This document shows, piece after piece, positions 2,874 through 46,569 of a stretch of DNA of 64,000 nt; the first letter of the stretch is position 1; the number at the start of each line of letters is the position of its first letter. The position numbers were made by a program, and so were the translations under genes. Under the pieces are notes generated by a model that was not told the origin of the DNA, did not search any database, and saw only the letters and a list, made by a program, of their open reading frames with translations. Where the stretch lies: IMG/VR virus record IMGVR_UViG_3300031715_000001, positions 42,689 through 106,688 of that record. The stretch is one strand, 5' to 3'. Source of the stretch: a virus.

Positions 2874-5584
2874 CTGACAGTTACCCCAGAAATCGTCGCG
2901 CCAGAGAATGTAGTGTTGCCAGTCGGCGTAGGCAAAGAGAAGCCTGTCGCGCCGCAATAAACAGCCAGGTTGTCTGGTGCTCCGGAATCACTGTGGCCGC
3001 ACTGCAATGTTCCGTCTGGCGAGATGGAAGTTTGGCTGACGTAGTAATCCGTGCCTGTATAGTCACCAATGACACTCACGCCGCGAGTTTTGAGTAATTC
3101 AACTACGTTTATCGGGGTGGCCGAAGTGCCAGTAGCCATCGGCGAAAAGTCCAGAATCATCATGTCCGACTGATTCTGGTAAGGACCGTTTACGCCACTA
3201 GTTGCCATCGTAACGTCGGGGGTGAATATTCCGGTCCCGGCAGTCCAGGTACCCCCCAACGTCCCTCCACAATTGAAGGTCGAGCCCCACTGAGCCGTAG
3301 CGCCTGAAACCGTCCCGGCGTTGTCGGTCAGCGTTAGGCTCGTGCCGCTATTTACCGTCGCCACTTTACAGAACTTTCCTGAACCCAGAGAACAGGTGGT
3401 GACGCCAGCGATCTGAATGTAGTGGCCGGCCAGCGCACTATCAAAGGCAGGACCGCTCGTTGCGGTTAGCGCCGTACCGCCCGTTACGTTCACGCTGCCG
3501 GTCAGATTGGTAAGTCCAGCGATGGTGCATTTATTATTAACGTCCAACAGTCCAGTCACGCCAGAGAGAGTGATCGGGCTTCCGACGATCTTATTGCCGT
3601 TTGATACTGGCAGGTTTCCATTTATATAGTTAGCATCAACGGTGAGTGAGCCTGGGGTGCCGGTTGTCAGACTTCGAATGGCGTAGCCGTATACTGCGGG
3701 GGCGCTGTTACCATTGTCAACAGTTATGATTGACAATGGAGCCGTCAAAGCTCCACCGACATGAAAGTCCTGAAGTTGGTGGTCTATCGGGAAGAGGAAG
3801 TATGCGCCACCGCCTGCCTGCACGGGCGTGAACATACTGACTGCGCCGCCCGCATCTGGATCAGAAGCGGTAACGACGCTGTATGCAGCCAAGTCTACGC
3901 CTTGAACAAAAAGCTCATGCTTGACGCCGCCTATGGAAACCTCAACCCAGCCCGCGTGCCCAGCGGAATTACAATTGGCATTCGCACAATCGGTCGCTGC
4001 ATTGGAAATTTGTTTGAATAGAAATCCTTTATCGCTTGATGATGGCCTTACCGGCATCGGACCTTCATCTACAATGGTGTGCCCCGGCCCTAGCCAACTC
4101 AAGAGTTCGTCAGCGGCGCTTGTAGCGCTCGTTGCTTCCAGAATGCACCACATCTTACCACTAACACCGGAGAATCCCTGACTGCACTGAAGAATTCCTC
4201 TGATATTCGTTTGGCTGCTACTACTAGGATTAGGATTCCCTGGGCTGATCGTTGTGAGCGAGCCATAATTGTACGTAACATAAGTCCCATTCGTTACGTC
4301 TGCGATTAGGGCTATTGGGCTATTACCTGTAACATGTACGTTGTTGGTGAGTGGGAAATACTTCCCACCAACCACCATTGTGTCGTTTGAAGAGGCGAGA
4401 CTATATAAGGCCGTAAAGGAGGGTCCGGTCGTTCCCACCAACAAACCTATATCCGCGTCGGAGCCGCCCGGAATCAGGACCCGATGAATTGTGGCGGAAT
4501 GCGTAGTATAGAGATAGGCATCCAAGCCTGGATTGAACGCTGTATAACTTGGGTCCCAGAGCATGTCTCCATCAGTTAGGGTTGTGACAGTCAACACATC
4601 ACCAGTACCATTCGTCTTGGTGATGTAAGTCGTACCACCTGGAAGGGTCTCTGTTATTACGTAATTGCCTGTCGTGCTGACGGAAGACTGAGGACCATCC
4701 GTTAGGATCACTCGAATGGCATTCGATGGGGTAACGCGATAACGAACACTCCCTGCTCCTGGGCCAAAGTTCGGGTCGGTGTCGGTGGTGGACGTACCGG
4801 GAGTCGTCGGCAGGAAACGAGTTCCACCAGGCACGGCGTTTGTAATAGTGCAAAGTTCCTCGTGTTGATAAATAGCACTCCCAACAGCACAGTTTACAGC
4901 AGCCCCGTTAGGAGTCTTCCAATTTTGAACGGACGGTGCAAAGGTCTGATAGTTGATTGTTTCCGTACAGCCCGAAGGGCACGAGCCGCTTTGAGTGATG
5001 GTGATAGTGGACTGCGGGCAGTTTGTTCCTACTGTTGAGCATGCCGGGAAACCTGTCAGATTCGATCCGGTCCAGTAAACGTAGACCTGATTTGGGGCAG
5101 TTGTCGTTGACACCGTGGCTGTCCCAGAGCATGAAGCCGCTGTTCCAGGGCTTGCTATAGCCGTGGTTGGACTGGAAGTATAGCCGCCGCCTCCATTGGT
5201 GATGACAAGTGCTGTCCCTCCGGCGATTGTATTTGTGCCGGTCAACGCCACTGTGGCCGCGCCGAGTTCCCCACCTCCGTTGAACAGATTCAGGACACAG
5301 GTCTGGCTGACTGAACCGACTGCCGTGATGCCGCTTGTATAAGTCCCAGCCGTTAGTGTCGAAGTGACCTGGGTGTGCATGATAGCGCACAGAGAACCAC
5401 CGGTCGTGATAGTATTCGCGCATCCCGATACCGTGATCGTGCCCGAACCGCCAGTGAGGGTGATTGCGCGCGGGTAGTCCTGCGCATAGGCCGAGACGCC
5501 TTGGAAGGTCAGCGTAGTAGGGCTGATCTGTCCCAACAATGCGGAAGAAATGGCCAGCGCCAATGCTAAAAAGCCGAATTTCAT
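2870..5584 (-). CDS. Large Thr/Ser/Gly-rich fibre-like protein
   Basis: The product has 904 residues with a Sec leader (MKFGFLALALAISSALLGQ). It is dominated by beta-prone Thr/Gly/Ser repeats. An N-terminal Ig-like stretch (LTFQGVSAYAQDYPRAI) has scattered Cys pairs, and the C-terminal part has the short G-N-T strands typical of the other fibre genes here. It is ATGA-coupled at both ends to its neighbours. No catalytic motif is visible. It is probably a tail-fibre or host-surface-binding protein, judged from composition and its place in a five-gene fibre block. Confidence 0.6.
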   Translation of the reverse strand: MKFGFLALALAISSALLGQISPTTLTFQGVSAYAQDYPRAITLTGGSGTITVSGCANTITTGGSLCAIMHTQVTSTLTAGTYTSGITAVGSVSQTCVLNLFNGGGELGAATVALTGTNTIAGGTALVITNGGGGYTSSPTTAIASPGTAASCSGTATVSTTTAPNQVYVYWTGSNLTGFPACSTVGTNCPQSTITITQSGSCPSGCTETINYQTFAPSVQNWKTPNGAAVNCAVGSAIYQHEELCTITNAVPGGTRFLPTTPGTSTTDTDPNFGPGAGSVRYRVTPSNAIRVILTDGPQSSVSTTGNYVITETLPGGTTYITKTNGTGDVLTVTTLTDGDMLWDPSYTAFNPGLDAYLYTTHSATIHRVLIPGGSDADIGLLVGTTGPSFTALYSLASSNDTMVVGGKYFPLTNNVHVTGNSPIALIADVTNGTYVTYNYGSLTTISPGNPNPSSSSQTNIRGILQCSQGFSGVSGKMWCILEATSATSAADELLSWLGPGHTIVDEGPMPVRPSSSDKGFLFKQISNAATDCANANCNSAGHAGWVEVSIGGVKHELFVQGVDLAAYSVVTASDPDAGGAVSMFTPVQAGGGAYFLFPIDHQLQDFHVGGALTAPLSIITVDNGNSAPAVYGYAIRSLTTGTPGSLTVDANYINGNLPVSNGNKIVGSPITLSGVTGLLDVNNKCTIAGLTNLTGSVNVTGGTALTATSGPAFDSALAGHYIQIAGVTTCSLGSGKFCKVATVNSGTSLTLTDNAGTVSGATAQWGSTFNCGGTLGGTWTAGTGIFTPDVTMATSGVNGPYQNQSDMMILDFSPMATGTSATPINVVELLKTRGVSVIGDYTGTDYYVSQTSISPDGTLQCGHSDSGAPDNLAVYCGATGFSLPTPTGNTTFSGATISGVTVR

Positions 5585-7128
5585 CGCAGCGTTACTCCAG
5601 GAGTTATATTCATGCCACTTCCTAGAATGGAAGGCAAGATCGTAGTTCCACCGCTGAACTCATAAGCCCCCGCATCCCACACACCGGTTGCCGGTCGAGA
5701 AGTGGTGGAACGAGACACGGCCTTATGATTAACCGAATCGTAGCTGGTGTAAGTTGAATCGCTCGTGCATAAACTGGCAAAGACGCCCGAGCACGAACTA
5801 GTGAAGTCTGTCCCGACCCCAACTGTTGAGTTGGTCGAAGCTACCGGTGAGTAGGCATAGGTTTCTGAAGCCGTATACTGATCGAAGCGAGGGGAACTGT
5901 CAGAGTCAGCCTGTGCCGCCGTCTGTTGCACGTTGCCACCATCGTTGATGCAACTTCCGTTCACGAAATTGCATATTGTTGGCGAGATGCAGTGAAAATT
6001 GCCGTAATGCGCCGTGCCCGTTCCCGCAGACCCGTTTTGCATACACGCTCCCGTGGCTGTTACGACGGTATTGTTGTAATAATAGAATGTGCCGTTCGTT
6101 GAAGGACCACCGATGCTAAAGCCTTTATCGGAGTTCACCTCGTTATCGTAAAGAACATTATTGAAGGCATAGGCAACGTAGGATGGGTTGGCTGAATTGG
6201 CCAACATGAAAATGGTGGTCCCGCCGCTACACACCGAGTGACGGACGACGTTGTTGGAAACTTGGATTACCGTACCGCTAAAGACCCCCTGCGGATAAAT
6301 CATGTTGCAGTGATCGCCCGTGGTCGAGAGGTTGTTATATTCAACTAGATTTCCGTCGATCACGTTGAAGATGCCGTTCATCCCGTCATACACGTAACGC
6401 ACGATGTTGCCATGTACGATGTTGCCGTGCAAGATTCCACCGAAACAGTAGTTGCCTCCTATGTCTGATGAGTCCGATCCGTCGATGACGTTGTACTGAA
6501 AAAGATTGCCGGTTCCTTCGCCGCCGAAGTTGCTCCAGTTCATGGTCATGGCGAATGGATCGTTTGTGCCGGAACCGCAAGAGCCACCCGTACGTGACCA
6601 GCCATGAATGTAAAGATTTTCTACCGTAATACCGTTGCCGTAAGTAGCGACGATGTTTGAACTAGACCCATCGTACTTATAGCCGGTGACCTCGATGTTG
6701 TCGAGAGTCAGGTAATTCCCCGCAAGCCAGACCACGTTACCGAGAGTGCTAGAGTTATTCCCGCAATTAGTCGCTTGGCAACTCCAAATAGGCCGCGTCC
6801 AGGATGCTCCCGTGAACCACGTTTGATCCACGCCGATGTAGATCGTGGACCCGCTGGAACCGGAGTAGGTAAGGTTCACGCCGCCTAAGTCCGTCGAACC
6901 CCACGTATCCCCTCCGTAGAGGATAAAGCGATCCCCAGGATTAGGGGAATATCCAGCAGCGTTAGATGTAGCGCCAGCCATTCCTGGAATATGCGCCCAC
7001 GGAGTTGCTTTCGATTGGGCAGTTGTAGAAGAACGAGTATCGAGACCGTTTGTTTTTGAGATATAAAATGTCGCCCCAGACAATGGAAGGCATAGCAGTG
7101 CTAAGAGAGCAAATCTCCTGTAGGTCAT
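5581..7128 (-). CDS. Right-handed beta-helix tailspike/depolymerase-like protein
   Basis: The product has 515 residues. A leader (MTYRRFALLALLCLPLSG) is followed by the pectate-lyase-like opening FYISKTNGLDTRSSTT with a PWAHIPGM motif, as in polysaccharide-degrading beta-helix proteins. Residues about 130-400 show parallel beta-helix rungs (GNYLTLDNIEVTGY, NGITVENLYIHGW, NLFQYNVIDG, NIVHGNIVRYVYDG, NGTFYYYNNTVV). An Asn/Gly ladder of this kind is typical of tailspikes that cut capsule or O-antigen. It is ATGA-coupled to the next gene and directly abuts the previous one. The substrate is unknown. Confidence 0.7.
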   Translation of the reverse strand: MTYRRFALLALLCLPLSGATFYISKTNGLDTRSSTTAQSKATPWAHIPGMAGATSNAAGYSPNPGDRFILYGGDTWGSTDLGGVNLTYSGSSGSTIYIGVDQTWFTGASWTRPIWSCQATNCGNNSSTLGNVVWLAGNYLTLDNIEVTGYKYDGSSSNIVATYGNGITVENLYIHGWSRTGGSCGSGTNDPFAMTMNWSNFGGEGTGNLFQYNVIDGSDSSDIGGNYCFGGILHGNIVHGNIVRYVYDGMNGIFNVIDGNLVEYNNLSTTGDHCNMIYPQGVFSGTVIQVSNNVVRHSVCSGGTTIFMLANSANPSYVAYAFNNVLYDNEVNSDKGFSIGGPSTNGTFYYYNNTVVTATGACMQNGSAGTGTAHYGNFHCISPTICNFVNGSCINDGGNVQQTAAQADSDSSPRFDQYTASETYAYSPVASTNSTVGVGTDFTSSCSGVFASLCTSDSTYTSYDSVNHKAVSRSTTSRPATGVWDAGAYEFSGGTTILPSILGSGMNITPGVTLR

Positions 7129-9254: not shown

Positions 9255-12200
9255 CTAGTTCGCCTGCACCACTAACAGCCTCGGAAAGGTTACATCGGCT
9301 GAGTAAAAGTTGATATTACCTGTCGCTGTATCGGTAGCCCGCCCGACCTGTACAATCATCAATCCCCCTGCAATACAACCGCTCATTTGTGTAGCACCGA
9401 ATTGAACATTCGAGCCGTTATAGAAGCCGTTCGCTACCGCGCTAGCTCCGAATGTGACGGTACTTGATGACTGCGCCGCTGAAAAGGTAGCGTCATCCGA
9501 CACCGTGCCATTTCCGGCAGTAGGGCACGATACCTTCACCTGTGGGATTACGGTATGCCCGTTAGTTGTATCGGAAGCAGCCGAGAAATAAAAGCGGACG
9601 TATGGATTGGTCGCCGTATCCCAATCTTCAGGAATAGTTAGTGAGAACTGAGCAAACGTGCTGGAGGTGTCGGTAATAGTAACGAATCCGCCCTGGTTGT
9701 TTGTTCCTGCCCGGCAGCCAACGGTGCCTCCCGATCCAATTGACCAACCCGCTCCAGCCGTAGTGTTATTGCAATTAGCTGCCGGGATCTGAAGGCGTTC
9801 GGGGAAGTCTATATAGGTTGGTTTGGTGCTAGCACCCTGAGAAACAAATACTTGCCCGCTAGTCCCCGCAACAGAGGACTGAAAAGCACCGGTTGATGTA
9901 GTACCGCCTAAGATAGGAGCGAAAGCCGTAACAGACGTGTCGCCAGTGCCGCCCCCTGAGACAGTAATCGTTGGTAGATCTCCGGTTGCAATAGCCCTGA
10001 ATGCTGGAGCGCCTGCAGTGGCGAACAATGCATGAGTCGTTGTCGTGTCAGCCGAGATGGTAGCCTCAGCTTGCGAGCCTTGACCGATCACGACAGCGTT
10101 GTTGGTCAATGCTGCCGCACTGGTTACCTGGGTGGCCGGGTTTAAAGAAAACTGAGCGTACGTGATGGCACTTCCAGAAGATCCGATGGCCGTCACCTGG
10201 GACGTGAGAAGCCAAGAAGTGGTCCCGTTGACGGTGCCGGATTGAACAGGAATGCTTCCGGTATTGTTGACGTCGGACGGCGTATCGTAGTCTAAAGCTC
10301 GCGTGAACACGGTGCTTATGCCCGTAGTCCCCACCACGGTCACTGTGTATACGCCATTGTAAGCTGCCGTGGATAGATTCTTTAGTAGGTAACGCTGCCC
10401 GGTTCCACTAACAGTCACGCCGTCAATGGTCGTCGTCCCGGTTGCTGTCAGGGTATACGTGTCACCGATACCACCCCCGACCTGCACGTACGTACCTGGG
10501 ATATTAGCGGTAGTAGCTGCAAGTACGGCAACCGCTGGATTGACGGCTGCGATGGCATTCGATACGGCGGTGGTAACGAAAGCGTCAGTGGCGAGGTCGG
10601 TCGAATTATCACCGGCTGTCTGGGTGGGAGCGGTGGGGGTACCGGTCAGCGCAGGACTAGCGGAAAGAACAGCCGTGGTGCCCGTTCCGGTGGTGGTGGT
10701 GGCAATGAGTTGCTTACTGCTGTTGGTTCCTAGCAAGGTGGCTGATGTTGGAATTGCAGCGCCTTCGACCTGCACCACCGTAGCAGCCACAGATCCAGAA
10801 CCGGACGCCGTCACATCGCCAGTTAATGCGCTGATACCTCCGCCCGAGGCAGCAGCCCCCGCAGGATTCATGTCAATCAGCGGAAGAGTGGTGGAGAGAG
10901 TAGCCGAAATACCGTCTCCGAACATACCGGCAGGCAGCGTTCCGGCAACCGCCATGACGATACCAACAGTGGAACCTTGCCCGGACGTACATGAACTCGT
11001 TCCACCAGAATCCGTCACTTGGCCAGCCGTTGAGCCCGCGCAAACGGTATGGTTTAACGTCACCGCTGAGGAGGCGTTGATCGGGATCAAGCTCCCAATC
11101 TTAGCCACATGCACAGTATTCGTAAGGACTTTTTCAGCAGCGCCTAGCCAATTCGTAGGACTAGCAGGGCAATCAGCGACAGTGTTAGCTGTGGCCGCAA
11201 CAGGGCATTCCAAATTGAACTGTGTCGCTGTTGTACCTTTATCGTATGGCTGTAAGAGTATCAACGGCCCCTGCAAACCTTGTGTTGTTCCGGTGGACTC
11301 TCCGCCTTGCAACTGCAAGCTCCCCGCTACCGAAGCCGCATTCGCCACAGCGTTGTTTCCGCCGCGCACAAGCGTGTAACCACCGACCGAAGAAGAACCG
11401 CCACCAGCCTGGCTATCCGCACCACGAAAGACACCACCTGGGAGCGTGCCATTCAGGGCTGTATCTAATCCACCATCATAAACCCCTGGATTTCCGCTAT
11501 TGTTGTACATGGTGTTTCCGGGAGCCGAAAAATTGCTCGTGGTTAACTGACCCCCGAAACCACCACCCATCGAAATAACGCCGTTCCCTAGATTCACCGT
11601 TGAATAGGCCGAATAAGCATTGGCCCCATTGCCCCAAATCATGGGCTGCGCGTTGGTTGAGTTGATGCCGAAGTTGTCGGTGGCTGTTGCGGTGAAGCCC
11701 GCAGCGGCGGGGATTTTTAAGTTACCGGCGCTTCCATCGAAGATACCTCCTGATCCGAGGGTGATCGTAGTTCCAGAGTAGGTAAGTTGGCTAATTCCGC
11801 CGAACGCGCCCGCGTTATTATATTGAATCTGTGTGCTACTGCCTCCGGGACTTCCGCCTCCGCCGCCCGAGGGAGTAACTGCGTTATAGCAAGGATTGGG
11901 GCTACCTCCGGTCGTGTATTCGATCGCCTGGCCATTGGTTGGGGTAAACCCCGAGCACAGAGGAACTCCGTTAATTCCGGCCACGGTGGTTGCTGGGAAG
12001 GTACCAGAAACATCTCCGGTGAACACGCCCGCATTTACCAGGTCAGCGGCTGGAACCAACCCATAGGTTATTTGCGACACGTTGCTACTGGGAGCGCCGA
12101 CAAGCATGACTCCTGCGGCTGAAGGGCCGGTAGGTGACGCCTGTAAACCGTAACCTGTGAACGTTGCTACATCAGGACCTATAAAACTGAATATATTCGC

Positions 12201-19250: not shown

Positions 19251-19350
19251 CCACGTGCCCGTCGGCATCGAGCGAAGACGGGTCCCCGTACTTATCCGCA
19301 GGATAAGGCCGGGTATCCAGGATGCGAGTGGACGAGGGCACGAAACGCAC
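19251..19350 (+). repeat. Long-loop hairpin repeat, right end of the 19.1-kb cassette
   Basis: The outer stem GTGCCC (19255-19260) pairs with GGGCAC (19336-19341); the tail is GAAACG. About 75 bases lie between, with an inner hairpin CTTATCC-GCA-GGATAAG (19291-19307). 46 of 47 bases at 19291-19337 match the long copy at 38061-38107. Confidence 0.85.
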
Positions 19351-38023: not shown

Positions 38024-38123
38024 TGCGCCCGTCGGCCAGAAGCGAAGATGGGTGCCCCTGCTTATCCGCAGGACAAGGCCGGGTATCCAGGATGCGAGTG
38101 GACGAGGAGGGCGCAAAACGGAA
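37987..38123 (+). repeat. Long-loop hairpin repeat with Box A, right end of the 37.5-kb cassette
   Basis: Outer stem GCGCCC (38025-38030) with GGGCGC (38109-38114); the 78-base loop carries CTTATCC-GCA-GGACAAG and is almost identical to the long copy at 19.3 kb. Tail AAAACGGAA. Confidence 0.85.
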
Positions 38124-40343: not shown

Positions 40344-40528
40344 TGATGTGCCCTCGCTGCCGTAGGGAGCTTTCCCTTGGCGAAGTCCACATCGCCTGCT
40401 CTCCAGCGATTACCATGGCGTGCCCGATATGCCGCGCCGAAAATGACCGTACACGCTCAAAGTGCCATCACTGCGAATCCGAGCTGCATCCCAAGCGGCA
40501 GGTTCAGCATGTGACCACTGATCACTGA
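40340..40528 (+). CDS. Small zinc-ribbon protein
   Basis: The product has 62 residues with CPRC-x(16)-CPIC and CHHC pairs, a double zinc ribbon typical of small phage regulators. It overlaps the preceding plus-strand gene (ATGA) and the end of the convergent gp4-like gene by seven bases. The repeat that closes the left part of the cassette lies inside the previous gene, so this second gene may have been added afterwards. It could be a transcription or translation regulator; no direct evidence. Confidence 0.5.
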   Translation: MMMCPRCRRELSLGEVHIACSPAITMACPICRAENDRTRSKCHHCESELHPKRQVQHVTTDH

Positions 40529-41262
40529 TATCTGTTTCCAAGATATACGTTACTTCTTCGGTCTCCCACCGCCCAGTCGAGTTCTCTCTTTAATGGCCGG
40601 TCGTTGTTCATCTTGATCAGTGCGAGTGATCGGATGGCATTGGCTCGCGTGTCTTCCGACATTTGCTGTTCGTTGGGATAGCGCGCGGCCAATTGTACGG
40701 CTAAATTGGACTCGATCATCATCTGGTAGCCGTTGGGATAAGTCAGTTCGGCGTCGCCAGTGGCATCGATTTGCGAAAGCGGCTGCTCGAGATACAACGC
40801 TATCTGGTTGGCATCGGTCGGAACGAATACCAAGTGCAGGGTACCAAGGGGCGGCTGAGAGCGTTCGTAGTAGAAGCATCTTGGATAACTGATAGTCTGG
40901 GTCTTTAATGTCCAGCCCTGCCATTCATCGAGCGTGAGTGGTTGCATCCGATATTCAGGGTAGGGCGCGTTGGCTGTGACGGTTACGAGTACCCCGGCGC
41001 GTTCGATCTGGTTCGGTGCGACCGGCATATCGAAGTCTCCGCCCGGTCCTACCAGATAATCGCCCTGGTTCGAAACCAGAGGAAACAGCATACGTGCGAC
41101 GTGCGAGACGGTGAAGCCGTCGGCGGCTAGTTGATCGACGAAGCGGTTGTAGAGCTGCCGGCATTCCTCGTTCTGATCTGGAGAGAGGATGGTCTGCTCG
41201 GTTTTGACAATCCCTGCGTCTCTAAATGCGCCGTAGAATAATTGAGTGATCGATATGCCCAT
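40522..41262 (-). CDS. Tail adaptor, P22 gp4-like, copy 2
   Basis: The product has 246 residues: a mostly helical N-terminus (ITQLFYGAFRDAGIVKTEQTI, NEECRQLYNRFVDQLAADGF), then a beta region (MPVAPNQIERAGVLVTV), then helices (MMIESNLAVQLAARYPNEQ). This order (DALxxIG, NxxVxxLxx, later AxxLAxxLA) is shared with the gene at 45198-45959, and both resemble P22 gp4, the head-to-tail adaptor. Two diverged copies flank several structural genes and cassettes. The end overlaps a convergent cassette gene. Confidence 0.6.
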   Translation of the reverse strand: MGISITQLFYGAFRDAGIVKTEQTILSPDQNEECRQLYNRFVDQLAADGFTVSHVARMLFPLVSNQGDYLVGPGGDFDMPVAPNQIERAGVLVTVTANAPYPEYRMQPLTLDEWQGWTLKTQTISYPRCFYYERSQPPLGTLHLVFVPTDANQIALYLEQPLSQIDATGDAELTYPNGYQMMIESNLAVQLAARYPNEQQMSEDTRANAIRSLALIKMNNDRPLKRELDWAVGDRRSNVYLGNRYQ

Positions 41263-41294
41263 GAGGATTTAGGAGAAACTGAAATGACGTTAGG

Positions 41295-41332
41295 AGCGTT
41301 TCGTGCCGCACTGAATTAGCGACACGGTCGGA
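41295..41332 (-). repeat. Hairpin repeat, minus orientation, left end of the 41.5-kb cassette
   Basis: Stem GTGCCGC with GCGACAC (one mismatch), loop ACTGAATTA shared with the copy at 54224. It ends just before the plus-strand gene. Confidence 0.8.
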
Positions 41333-41334
41333 AT

Positions 41335-41802
41335 ATGATCATCGTTCGTCTATCTCTGTGGCAAAAGCTAAAGTTACTTTTCGGTTGGTACCTGCAGATC
41401 GAGGAATGGCCAATCGGTCAGAGTTATTACCAGTACGTGCTAGGGCCTTGGGAAACACCGCGACAATTCAGGAGCCGGTGGCGGTGCGAGCGTTGCGGTG
41501 AATATATCGAAGGTGATCGTGATGGTCATAAGTGTGTTCCGCGTCGGCCTCCGTATAGTTCCTATGTTTACGGTGAAGGTGTTGTGCTCGCTGAGATCCT
41601 TAAAGTGGTAGGCAGGCGGGGTATTCAACTCCGTGACATTCAGAATCTCCCAGGCGTTCTCGAACAGGACTATTCGACAATTCAGGACAGGATTGAAGAA
41701 TACGAAAAGCAGATCGCCGTCCTGGAGACGATCAAATCGTCAAGTGTGCCCGACACAGATCCCCAACGTGCCCGTGCTCCAGGAGGGCACGAGACGGAAT
41801 AA
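41335..41802 (+). CDS. Zinc-ribbon cassette protein with repeat-encoded C-terminus
   Basis: The product has 155 residues. A hydrophobic N-terminal helix (IIVRLSLWQKLKLLFGWYL) is followed by a zinc-binding pair (CERCGEYIEGDRDGHKC), a beta linker and a coiled coil (IQDRIEEYEKQIAVLETIK). The last 17 codons are encoded by the right-hand repeat (DPQRARAPGGHETE) and the stop lies in its GGAATAA tail. A left-hand repeat copy ends just before the start. Together this is a textbook cassette: outward repeats, one plus-strand gene, set between two minus-strand late genes. Confidence 0.6.
   Translation: MIIVRLSLWQKLKLLFGWYLQIEEWPIGQSYYQYVLGPWETPRQFRSRWRCERCGEYIEGDRDGHKCVPRRPPYSSYVYGEGVVLAEILKVVGRRGIQLRDIQNLPGVLEQDYSTIQDRIEEYEKQIAVLETIKSSSVPDTDPQRARAPGGHETE
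41759..41802 (+). repeat. Hairpin repeat, plus orientation, right end of the 41.5-kb cassette
   Basis: CCCCAAC, stem GTGCCC/GGGCAC, loop GTGCTCCAGGA-type, tail GAGACGGAATAA, which holds the stop codon of the gene at 41335. Confidence 0.85.
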
Positions 41803-41810
41803 AGTTGAAT

Positions 41811-42206
41811 TTAATTCAGTAAGAACTGCTTGCTATTGGATGTCGTAATTGTCACCATTGCCCCGGCAGCGTGAGGGACGGCATTTGTTCCAAGGGGAAA
41901 GGCAACCGTTGGCCATCCCAGGGTGAAAGCGCGGATGACTGGAACATGCGAGCTGCCGATGCGCCAGCGCGAAGTGACCTGCATGTACTCCCGATCGATC
42001 TGAATCAACGTCGGCGTCGAATGGTGACAGCCTCCCGAGTCAGGATGCAAGATTCCTGTAGGGTCCGCGACAATGATGTAGTCCTCGGTGATTCCCACCG
42101 CGTTCGCCAGCACGGTCGTGTAGGTGTTGACACGGGTGACGGGTGGCGGAGGAGGAGGCGGCGCCGCTGGCTGCGAGAGATCGAAAACCAGCAGCGCCGC
42201 ATGCAT
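41811..42206 (-). CDS. Small virion-associated protein, polyproline linker, paralogue family
   Basis: The product has 131 residues. Residues 11-22 include PPPPPPP. The core (YTTVLANAVGITEDYIIVADPTGI, TLIQIDREYMQVTSRWRIG, VTITTSNSKQF) matches the gene at 44096-44401 (YTTTLLNAVGLQDNYIVVA, IIQIDQEYMAVDARYRFG, VMITTTDSRE). The gene at 47125-47799 shares the same opening logic but is longer. It is probably a virion decoration or minor structural protein; position supports this but no homologue is certain. Confidence 0.5.
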   Translation of the reverse strand: MHAALLVFDLSQPAAPPPPPPPVTRVNTYTTVLANAVGITEDYIIVADPTGILHPDSGGCHHSTPTLIQIDREYMQVTSRWRIGSSHVPVIRAFTLGWPTVAFPLGTNAVPHAAGAMVTITTSNSKQFLLN

Positions 42207-43559: not shown

Positions 43560-44087
43560 TCAACTGTGGTCGTAATACACCGTGGCGAACACCCCGCAGG
43601 AAGCGTCATCGAAGTTTTCTACGGTGAGCCGAAAGAACGCTTCTGCCGGGATCTGGTGATAGTCCTTGTGAGGAGGTTCGTAGTCTTCGCTGGTACCGTT
43701 TGAAACCAGATAACCGAGGATCGTCTCGACGCCGCCTGAAACCGATTTGACGGTCCAGACACAATCGCGGCTGGAAGCAACGATGACCTTGGCCAGCTTT
43801 CCGCCCGCTGAAATGGCGGGGCAGTCGAAATTTTCAGAGCCCGCCGCCGCGAGAGTGCTATTGGAGAACACCTGAAAGGTCGGGTTCATGGGCCCGGCCT
43901 GGCGAACCACCGCGCCTCCGTCGGCTGAGCCCGGATCCACGGCGCGAACATCCTGCAAATCGCCGGCATTGGCACCTGCGATGCGTCCGCGTTCCCGGTA
44001 AACCAACTTGCCCGCGACTTCGAGCGAATCCGCATCGAGGCTTTTGCCCGGCCCGTCTTCCGGCAGTCCGATAACATCGTTGGCCAT
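43560..44087 (-). CDS. Virion-region protein; source of the 95-bp duplication
   Basis: The product has 175 residues: an acidic N-terminal part (MANDVIGLPEDGPGKSLDAD) and a beta domain (GGKLAKVIVASSRDCVWTVKSVSGGVETIL). The C-terminus (KDYHQIPAEAFFRLTVENFDD, then ASCGVFATVYY) comes from the 95-bp segment that is also found, identical, in the divergent gene at 44403-44843, read there on the other strand. No family recognised. It is probably a structural protein like its neighbours. Confidence 0.55.
   Translation of the reverse strand: MANDVIGLPEDGPGKSLDADSLEVAGKLVYRERGRIAGANAGDLQDVRAVDPGSADGGAVVRQAGPMNPTFQVFSNSTLAAAGSENFDCPAISAGGKLAKVIVASSRDCVWTVKSVSGGVETILGYLVSNGTSEDYEPPHKDYHQIPAEAFFRLTVENFDDASCGVFATVYYDHS
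43575..43669 (-). repeat. 95-bp duplication, source copy
   Basis: This segment encodes the C-terminal end of the minus-strand structural gene at 43560. It is identical, base for base, to 44676-44770, in the same orientation, 1101 bases away. The source copy lacks the flanking 14-base direct repeat, so it is probably the donor. Confidence 0.9.
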
Positions 44088-44095
44088 TTGGCTGT

Positions 44096-44401
44096 TTATT
44101 CGCGGCTATCAGTGGTCGTGATCATCACCGTAGCCCCGGCTGCGTGCACAACCACATCCGATCCTATGCTCGGTGCTTGCCAAGCCAGTCCGCGAACCAC
44201 CGTGACGATATTCGAGCCGAAGCGGTAGCGGGCGTCGACGGCCATATACTCCTGATCGATTTGGATAATGGATTGGATGGCGTTGTGAGCCCCGCCTGAG
44301 TCCGCATTTACAATTCCCGTTGGATTGGCGACGACGATGTAATTGTCCTGGAGGCCAACGGCGTTGAGCAGCGTCGTGGTATAAGTTTTGGTCGAGGGCA
44401 T
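44096..44401 (-). CDS. Small virion-associated protein, paralogue of 41811-42206
   Basis: The product has 101 residues without the polyproline linker of its paralogue. Shared core: YTTTLLNAVGLQDNYIVVA, NADSGGAHNAIQSIIQIDQ, VVTVVRGLAW and VMITTTDSRE. It is divergent from a plus-strand cassette gene whose start lies two bases beyond its own start. This implies very compact packing at the cassette boundary. The function is probably structural. Confidence 0.5.
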   Translation of the reverse strand: MPSTKTYTTTLLNAVGLQDNYIVVANPTGIVNADSGGAHNAIQSIIQIDQEYMAVDARYRFGSNIVTVVRGLAWQAPSIGSDVVVHAAGATVMITTTDSRE

Positions 44402-44402
44402 C

Positions 44403-44843
44403 GTGTACGTTATTCCGTTTCAGCTCAACGCTCGCGAGTATTCTATCTTCGTGGTCCTGCAGGAGGAGGGCTTGAAGCGGATCCGCGCCTACGATCCGGC
44501 CCAGGTGAACGTGCAGGCGCTAGGCCCGGCGTTTACGCATCTGCGGCTGAAGGATATTCACGTCGGGTACGCCACTGATTCTGAAATCCGGGAGGTCCTC
44601 AGACTCGCTGAATTAGGGCGAGTGCAGGATGGCCTGAAGTGGCTATCCCGTGGTTTCGAGTTCAAGCCCGAATTCATACACCGTGGCGAACACCCCGCAG
44701 GAAGCGTCATCGAAGTTTTCTACGGTGAGCCGAAAGAACGCTTCTGCCGGGATCTGGTGATAGTCCTTGTCAAGCCCGAATTCGGGGATCACGACGGGCC
44801 GCCGTTGAGCCTGAAACGAAAGCCTGGGGAGCCCGCGCAGTGA
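44403..44843 (+). CDS. Cassette gene carrying an in-frame 108-bp insertion
   Basis: A GTG start with a GAGGG ribosome site gives 146 residues. The head (NAREYSIFVVLQEEGLKRIRA, FTHLRLKDIHVGYATDSEIRE) resembles proteins common in phage genomes, which in memory end with a 'xRPxxGDxD' type motif. Here residues about 92-127 are an insertion of 36 codons made of the 95-bp duplication plus one copy of a 14-bp direct repeat, splitting 'FKPEF' from 'GDHDGPPLS'. Removing it would restore a shorter protein of about 110 residues. Function unknown. Confidence 0.6.
   Translation: MYVIPFQLNAREYSIFVVLQEEGLKRIRAYDPAQVNVQALGPAFTHLRLKDIHVGYATDSEIREVLRLAELGRVQDGLKWLSRGFEFKPEFIHRGEHPAGSVIEVFYGEPKERFCRDLVIVLVKPEFGDHDGPPLSLKRKPGEPAQ
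44676..44770 (+). repeat. 95-bp duplication, inserted copy with 14-bp direct repeats
   Basis: This copy is flanked by TCAAGCCCGAATTC at 44662-44675 and at 44770-44783 (sharing one base). Copy plus one direct repeat is 108 bases, exactly 36 codons, and keeps the plus-strand gene open. Here the segment is read on the strand opposite to the source gene. Confidence 0.9.
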
Positions 44844-44856
44844 TACGCTTGCGAAT

Positions 44857-45123
44857 ATGCAACCAGCAACATCCGCTCCCAATGATCTGACGCGCGCTGA
44901 TCGTCTGACCCCCGCCATCGAGGAGGAGATCGTTCGACAATTCTCACCTCAAATCTGGAATGACGAACAACAGATCCGGGGTGGCCTCGTTCGGGACGCA
45001 CTTATTAAAGCGACGGGCGTCATCATCGCCAACGTTCCGCCTGGTCCCGATCGCACGGTGGCACTACGTAAGCTGCGTGAGGCACGAATGGACTGTAGTG
45101 TGGCAATCAGCTTGAACATATAA
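44857..45123 (+). CDS. Possible Acb2-type cyclic-nucleotide sponge
   Basis: The product has 88 residues, mostly helical. The pattern 'F(S)PxxxxxxQQIRxxLxRxAxIKxxxxI.xNVPPGPDRxxALxxLREARMxxxxAI' resembles Acb2-family anti-CBASS proteins, which end with a similar Pro-x-x-R-x-x-Ala-Leu-x-x-Leu-x-x-Ala-x-Met-x-x-x-x-Ala-Ile tail. Such proteins bind cyclic di- or trinucleotides and blunt CBASS or Thoeris signals. The match is from memory; no search was possible. It is the second gene of a plus-strand cassette. Its TAA stop lies in the start of the closing hairpin repeat. Confidence 0.5.
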   Translation: MQPATSAPNDLTRADRLTPAIEEEIVRQFSPQIWNDEQQIRGGLVRDALIKATGVIIANVPPGPDRTVALRKLREARMDCSVAISLNI

Positions 45124-45185
45124 CCGGACTGCCGGGGCGGCGTCCGCTCTTCATTGCGCCCGTTGCCAGGAGGGCGCAAAACGAA
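45119..45185 (+). repeat. Hairpin repeat with Box A, end of the Acb2-like gene
   Basis: Box A ATAACCGGACTGCCGGGG contains the stop of the plus-strand gene. Stem GCGCCC (45156-45161) with GGGCGC (45172-45177); tail AAAACGAA. The matching left copy of this cassette is not visible. Confidence 0.85.
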
Positions 45186-45197
45186 CCAAAGCCTTGA

Positions 45198-45959
45198 TCA
45201 CTGTCCCGGAACTACTGGTGTTCCATCACCCTTAGTAGGTCCAGCTAATGTTCTTGAAGATCCAAATGCTCCACTCAGTTTGTCATTATTGATCTGCTCT
45301 AACTTCTGAATTGCATCCTGATACTGTGCCGTCACTTCCGGGGTGACACTGAACCGGTAAGCGGGAGCTAGTGCGATCGTCAAACCGAGGCGCATCGGTA
45401 GGATATATTCAGTCGGAAAGTAGTTCTCGATCAGCTGCTGCTCGTCGCCTGGGGCAAAGGTGGTCAGCGGATTCCACTGCGCCTGCTTCAGGAATCCGTT
45501 GAACTGCGGGATGGGCGCGACATTGATGGTCGCAATCGGCACGTTGTAGTCGTAGAAATAATCCGTGGGCCCGTCCGGATCCTGGAGAGTCCTTGTCGTC
45601 AGGCTTCCAAACTGGGGCCGGGTCAGGATATTCAGCGGCCAGCGGCGCGCGGTTCCGACGATATACCAGACGGCCTGCACGTACACCGGCCTGGTGTAAG
45701 TGGGATTCGCGCCTCCGGTCTCGAAGTTTGGCGCAGCGCCGGCCCCCGGCCCGATCTGATAGCTCCCGACGCCCGCCGTGAGCGGATAAGAGACCTCGGG
45801 CACGAAGTTTAGCCGGAGCCTCGAGGCGGACCAGCTTTGCAGCATATCCGTCTGCGTTCGCATGGCGTGCGCGACACGTTGGCCGGACGGAGTCTGTCCG
45901 GGCGTGAGCGCGCCCACGTCAGAGAGCGAGTCGCTTATGAGGTCGAGTACAGAGGGCAT
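45198..45959 (-). CDS. Tail adaptor, P22 gp4-like, copy 1
   Basis: The product has 253 residues. The opening helices (VLDLISDSLSDVGALTPGQT, AHAMRTQTDMLQSWSASRLR) are typical of the gp4 adaptor family; a beta part follows (VSYPLTAGVGSYQIGPG), then helices (RLGLTIALAPAYRFSVTPEV, YQDAIQKLEQINND). The N-terminal pattern 'LIxxSLxxxGxLxxGQTxSxxxxxxAxxxxxxMLxSW' is the family hallmark. Its second, more diverged copy is at 40522-41262. Such adaptors seal the portal. It precedes a cassette. Confidence 0.65.
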   Translation of the reverse strand: MPSVLDLISDSLSDVGALTPGQTPSGQRVAHAMRTQTDMLQSWSASRLRLNFVPEVSYPLTAGVGSYQIGPGAGAAPNFETGGANPTYTRPVYVQAVWYIVGTARRWPLNILTRPQFGSLTTRTLQDPDGPTDYFYDYNVPIATINVAPIPQFNGFLKQAQWNPLTTFAPGDEQQLIENYFPTEYILPMRLGLTIALAPAYRFSVTPEVTAQYQDAIQKLEQINNDKLSGAFGSSRTLAGPTKGDGTPVVPGQ

Positions 45960-46014: not shown

Positions 46015-46569
46015 TTACTTGTTCGCATCGGCCGCTCTCTTGTCCGCATCGGCCGCTCTCTTGTCCGCATCGGCCGCTTTCTTTTTCTCGGCGTTCAATT
46101 GGTCCTCGCAGTCGGGATCCTTTCCCGGTTGAAAGTCTTTTTCCGGTAGAGGGGGGTTGGCGAGGGGCGGCATGAAACGGCCTTGTTGGGTCGGCGCCGG
46201 CACGAGAACAGCCTCGGGAGCGAGGCGAAGAGGAGGTTCCCCTTCGGGCTGCACGGGCGCTGGGACCACTGGCGCCGTGTAAGCCGCCCGGATCGCCGCG
46301 CCGATATTTCTGCCGATGGACCCGGTTTTGGGGAACTGCTCGGCTATCGCTACGTCGCGGCCCATCTGGTCCAGAACTCCCTGGTTGTAGCCGCGCTGAT
46401 AATCTTCGTCGGCCAGTGCCAGGCGCGAGGCGGTGTCGGTAATGGCACGCTCGCGCGTGAATTGTTTGTAGTCTTCCGGATTCACGCGGCTGTGCTCGAG
46501 TTCATCCTTGACGAGCCGGGGTTTGCCTGGGTTTTGGGGATCCGGGATATAGCGGGGATGATGTTCCAT
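46015..46569 (-). CDS. Acidic/helical virion-region protein with tandem C-terminal repeats
   Basis: The product has 184 residues. The N-terminal half has helical charged sequence (TRERAITDTASRLALADEDYQ), a Pro-rich linker, and a C-terminal tail of three repeats of the form KRAADAD encoded by 21-bp tandem repeats. It starts directly after the ribosome site AAGGAG. No family is recognised; it may be a scaffold-like or head-internal protein. Confidence 0.5.
   Translation of the reverse strand: MEHHPRYIPDPQNPGKPRLVKDELEHSRVNPEDYKQFTRERAITDTASRLALADEDYQRGYNQGVLDQMGRDVAIAEQFPKTGSIGRNIGAAIRAAYTAPVVPAPVQPEGEPPLRLAPEAVLVPAPTQQGRFMPPLANPPLPEKDFQPGKDPDCEDQLNAEKKKAADADKRAADADKRAADANK
46024..46086 (-). 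repeat. 21-bp tandem repeats at the end of the 46.0-kb gene
   Basis: Three units of cgcatcggccgctctcttg-type sequence (unit 21 bases; the third diverges at its end) encode the KRAADAD repeats of the protein. The units are in frame, so copy number can change without loss of the frame. Confidence 0.8.

What the first reader, a model, noticed from the sequence alone, without database searches (positions are those of the whole stretch)
43575..44783. Perfect 95-bp duplication read in opposite directions, in-frame, with 14-bp direct repeats
Bases 43575-43669 (C-terminus of a minus-strand gene) are identical to 44676-44770 inside a plus-strand gene. The latter copy is flanked by TCAAGCCCGAATTC on both sides; copy plus one repeat is 108 bases (36 codons), so the reading frame survives with no stop. 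The copy interrupts an ordinary-looking FKPEF/GDHDGP join. Identity without any drift means a recent event, perhaps template switching or a target-duplicating insertion. It creates new protein sequence from an antisense strand.
Basis: seen in the sequence. Interest (0 to 1): 0.82.

Follow-up and report, generated by a model that had tools for sequence, protein, structure and literature searches.

The report
One-off 94-bp copied insertion in phage
An uncultured phage appears to have copied a 94-base piece of one gene's tail end into the middle of a neighbouring, oppositely oriented gene, doubling 14 bases at the landing site; it is a real-looking but isolated mutation scar, not a mobile element or a dedicated system.

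Summary
In detail: 43575-43669 equals 44676-44770 letter for letter, and the second copy is flanked by two copies of TCAAGCCCGAATTC. One T is shared with the repeat, so the insert is 94 bp plus a 14-bp duplication, 108 bp. The window belongs to a 106,688-base IMG/VR record of a P22-like phage whose ends overlap, so probably a near-complete genome. Codon usage gives the direction: the segment scores as coding on the minus strand, like the rest of gene 43560-44087 (donor), not on the plus strand, where it interrupts 44403-44843 (recipient). It is single-copy, has no terminal inverted repeats and belongs to no repeat family. No reverse transcriptase or Ku was found in the record, so it is neither a mobile element nor a diversity-generating retroelement. 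Junction microhomology is 0 and 1 nt. Best reading: a recent, accidental templated (filler) insertion at a staggered break or by a double template switch. The open frame has about a 1-in-6 chance of arising by luck and is no evidence of selection. A chimeric assembly cannot be excluded without reads, and no uninterrupted relative was found. Seen in passing: about 38 covarying hairpins across this genome, more interesting than the finding.

The parts
43575..43669 (.). donor copy (95 nt), the 3' end of minus-strand gene 43560-44087
   Evidence: codon score 0.221 bits/codon on the minus strand against 0.29 for the rest of that gene and -0.066 on the plus strand
44676..44769 (.). inserted copy (94 nt; position 44770 T is shared with the second 14-mer)
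44662..44675 (.). left 14-nt direct repeat TCAAGCCCGAATTC
44770..44783 (.). right 14-nt direct repeat TCAAGCCCGAATTC
43560..44087 (-). donor gene, 175 aa, no family match; lies in the run of minus-strand genes around the coat-protein gene
44403..44843 (+). recipient gene, 146 aa as it stands (110 aa without the 108-bp insertion), no family match and no homologue found
44857..45123 (+). next plus-strand gene, 88 aa, weak match to phrog_1454 (function unknown); with 44403-44843 forms a two-gene plus-strand island

Best explanation
A one-off templated (filler) insertion. Shown by sequence: a 94-bp segment of the 3' end of gene 43560-44087 is present a second time, in the same DNA orientation, 1.1 kb away inside plus-strand gene 44403-44843, with 14 bp of the target duplicated on either side. 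Inferred: the target suffered a break with ends staggered by 14 nt (or a polymerase left the template and returned 14 nt upstream), a short nearby DNA fragment was captured or copied, and the 14-nt overhangs were filled in. Near-absence of microhomology (0 and 1 nt) favours end-joining capture over microhomology-driven switching. Inferred: the event is accidental and its open reading frame is luck. Effect on the plus gene's product: a 36-residue insertion near its C-terminus, of unknown consequence.
For: Exact 95-nt match and flanking 14-mers. Polarity of copying from codon usage: insert -0.066 bits/codon on plus, +0.221 on minus; recipient upstream of the insertion +0.076 on plus and negative in its other five frames. 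Single-copy: no other related sequence in the record and no match to the donor's central 28-mer in IMG/VR. No terminal inverted repeats. No reverse transcriptase found. The record's end overlap of 126 nt with one mismatch suggests an assembly k-mer near 127, longer than the 95-nt repeat, which argues for a read-supported junction (inference; the assembler is not known).
Against: No reads, no second assembly and no uninterrupted relative. The recipient's status as a protein-coding gene rests only on a modest codon score (6.9 bits over 91 codons), and its last 19 codons score slightly negative (-2.3 bits). No end-joining enzyme was found in the phage (Ku absent); the host is unknown.
Confidence: 0.7

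Rival explanations
1. Assembly or library artefact: a chimeric read or a wrong graph path put a copy of 43575-43669 into an otherwise intact plus gene.
For: The record is a metagenomic contig with no reads to hand; zero divergence; no record with either the filled or the empty site was found; the joined flanks read smoothly as FKPEF/GDHDGP.
Against: A chimera would not by itself make a clean 14-bp duplication of the target on both sides; 95 nt is shorter than the probable final k-mer (inference).
Confidence: 0.25
2. A member of a small mobile element family that inserts in frame, in the manner of Rickettsia palindromic elements or other MITEs.
For: Target duplication and an in-frame open insert.
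Against: The copy is a piece of another gene, has no terminal inverted repeats and no other copies in the record; RPEs are about 150 bp, multi-copy families (PMC10969869).
Confidence: 0.02
3. A diversity-generating retroelement template/variable repeat pair.
For: Two nearby copies of about 100 nt, one at the 3' end of a gene.
Against: No reverse transcriptase found in the record, with controls ringing; no adenine-specific differences (the copies are identical); the second copy lies inside a gene with target duplications.
Confidence: 0.01

Closest known systems
Templated / filler insertions at double-strand breaks (eukaryotic end joining; short insertions of breakage-replication/fusion, PMC12807874)
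   Same: Short segment (0.1-1 kb class) copied from another site, source copy kept
   Different: Here a single event in a phage, with a clean 14-bp target duplication; the enzymes are unknown
Tandem duplications from fill-in of staggered breaks (PMC5730883; Vaughn and Bennetzen 2014, cited there)
   Same: Overhang fill-in followed by joining would duplicate a short target stretch
   Different: Here a 94-bp segment from elsewhere lies between the two target copies
Rickettsia palindromic elements / MITEs (PMC10969869)
   Same: Short in-frame insertion inside a gene
   Different: Not repeated, no inverted repeats, derived from an identifiable gene

Membership tests
Templated (filler) insertion | inserted sequence identical to an identifiable template elsewhere, which is retained | tested here: met
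Templated (filler) insertion | empty allele exists | tested here: inconclusive
   no relative carrying the site found
Templated (filler) insertion | joined by end joining or template switching | not testable with these tools
   junctions show 0 and 1 nt microhomology, compatible with either
Mobile element / MITE / RPE | multiple copies of the element | tested here: not met
   only two copies, one of them the native gene
Mobile element / MITE / RPE | terminal inverted repeats | tested here: not met
   ATACACCGTGG vs reverse-complement end CAAGGACTATC
Mobile element / MITE / RPE | target-site duplication | tested here: met
   14 bp
Diversity-generating retroelement | reverse transcriptase | tested here: not met
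   PF00078 absent from the record, controls positive
Diversity-generating retroelement | adenine-directed differences between the repeats | tested here: not met
   100% identical

The most novel reading that the evidence does not exclude
The insertion is kept because it does something: it gives the plus-strand island's mRNA 95 nt of perfect complementarity to the 3' end of the mRNA of gene 43560-44087, making a trans-acting antisense brake between two phage transcripts, and/or adds a functional 36-residue segment to the plus-strand protein.
Probability: 0.04. Interest if true: 0.55.

Novelty: new member of a known kind. Interest (0 to 1): 0.2.

Why it matters
If real, it is a cleanly readable example of a short gene fragment being copied into a neighbouring gene in a phage, with donor, recipient, direction and target duplication all still visible: a snapshot of how phage proteins can gain novel segments. 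One isolated event without function or relatives changes little.

Tried and rejected
Homologues of the recipient, as it stands and with the insertion left out: none in phages, IMG/VR or GTDB contigs, and in plasmids only an E=0.6 match. Homologues of the donor: none. Portal-based kin (80 loci, at most 29% identity in the best segment) hold neither gene. Pfam, PHROGs and NCBIfam give nothing for either gene, and PADLOC nothing for the recipient. Exact scans of IMG/VR for the target site and for the donor: none. The second exact 95-nt repeat (inverted, record 3602/40443) raised the suspicion of a fixed-length assembly artefact; it is the identical core of a 135-bp, 94% match between members of a dispersed repeat family, so I treat the equal length as coincidence. 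The 12-bp palindrome CCCGAATTCGGG of the rejoined site: 12-nt palindromes occur in the window as often as chance predicts (16 vs 15.6). Single-sequence AlphaFold models of donor and recipient are too poor to use (pLDDT 42 and 44). Ku and reverse transcriptase: absent. A guess that the 88-aa neighbour is Tad1/Acb2-like found no support.

Full report
WHAT IS THERE. Both copies and the flanking repeats are exactly as described. The copies are direct repeats on the DNA, 1,101 bp apart; it is the genes that run in opposite directions. The T at 44770 belongs both to the 95-nt match and to the second 14-mer, so the event is: 94 bp inserted, 14 bp of target duplicated, 108 bp gained.

WHERE IT IS. The window is part of a 106,688-base IMG/VR virus record. 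Its first and last 126 bases match with one mismatch, so the genome is probably near complete and circularly permuted. It carries a P22-type portal, a P22-type coat protein and a terminase-like protein; the best relatives found through the portal are at most 29% identical in the best segment. The donor gene 43560-44087 lies in a run of minus-strand genes around the coat-protein gene. The recipient 44403-44843 and the next gene 44857-45123 form a plus-strand island in that run. Neither donor nor recipient matches any family or any sequence searched, apart from one plasmid match at E=0.6.

DIRECTION. A codon model trained on 15 long genes of the window scores the 31 codons of the segment at +0.221 bits per codon on the minus strand, close to +0.29 for the rest of the donor gene, but -0.066 on the plus strand. 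The recipient's 91 codons before the insertion score +0.076 on plus and negative in the five other frames, whereas its last 19 codons score slightly negative on plus (-2.3 bits; all). So the segment is most likely native to the donor and foreign to the recipient.

IS THE OPEN FRAME MEANINGFUL? Probably not. Half of the in-phase antisense 31-codon windows of this phage are stop-free and one length in three keeps frame, so about one random insertion of this kind in six would stay open. I see no evidence of selection.

MECHANISM. The donor copy is intact and the target is duplicated, so the segment was copied or captured, not moved. Junction homology is 0 nt at one side and 1 nt at the other. I favour capture or copying of a short fragment at a break with 14-nt staggered ends followed by fill-in; a polymerase that left its template and came back 14 nt upstream gives the same product. 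Comparable outcomes are described in eukaryotes: short templated insertions (PMC12807874) and duplications at breaks with overhangs (PMC5730883). These are analogies, not proof of the same enzymes; Ku was not found in the phage.

NOT A KNOWN ELEMENT. No further copies, no terminal inverted repeats and no reverse transcriptase exclude a MITE/RPE-type element and a diversity-generating retroelement as far as these tools can.

ARTEFACT? This is the main open rival. In favour of reality: the two-sided 14-bp target duplication is not what a simple chimera makes, and the terminal overlap suggests a k-mer near 127 that would span the 95-nt repeat (inference). Against: one contig, no reads, no relative in either state. 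A second exact 95-nt repeat in the record (inverted) at first suggested a length-specific artefact, but it lies inside a 135-bp, 94% match between members of a dispersed repeat family.

VERDICT. Observation confirmed; most likely a single, recent, accidental duplicative insertion, with misassembly at about one in four. Low interest as it stands. The dispersed hairpin family listed under 'noticed in passing' deserves its own look.

Noticed in passing
window 19031, 22420(-), 33490, 34025(-), 35988, 36762(-), 40330(-), 41801(-), 45188(-), 53280, 54219, 54896(-), 58135, 58253(-), 59832, 62273(-); further copies in L002-L004: About 38 copies (42 model matches at E<=0.1) of a 50-nt hairpin element, consensus CGTYT-CGYGCCC-tcCTGgmaac-GGGCRCG-TTGRRGA: conserved flanks and loop, stem varying with compensation (4 of 6 pairs changed on both sides, 97% of cells paired, covariation 0.47 vs 0.19 shuffled). 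16 of 38 begin within 40 nt after the stop of a long same-strand ORF (about 10% expected at random, 4 of 38 on the opposite strand), like a terminator or 3'-end signal without a T-run. No Rfam match in the window, not in 80 related loci; present in an otherwise unrelated IMG/VR phage contig, L091.
   Followed up: partly
record 3563-3764, 6332-6465, 9947-10003, 10656-10761, 40417-40564; window 19257-19337, 38027-38107: A second dispersed repeat family; two members share an exact inverted 95-nt core within 135 bp at 94%.
   Followed up: partly
window 40522-42206 and 44096-45959: Repeated gene arrangement: distantly similar minus genes 40522-41262 and 45198-45959 (E 0.003) and clear paralogues 41811-42206 and 44096-44401 (52%), each pair enclosing plus-strand ORFs.
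   Followed up: partly
record 1-126 and 106563-106688: Terminal overlap of 126 nt with one mismatch: the IMG/VR 'linear' record is probably a complete circularly permuted genome of about 106.56 kb.
   Followed up: yes
L004:612-1772 and L002:2137-2736: By eye, a TnpB/IS605-OrfB-like ORF and a serine-recombinase-like ORF in the part of the record outside the window; no family search was run on them.
   Followed up: no
window 46015-46569: Minus-strand gene ending in a heptad-like repeat (AADADKR), with a 34-nt exact repeat at 21-nt spacing in the DNA.
   Followed up: no
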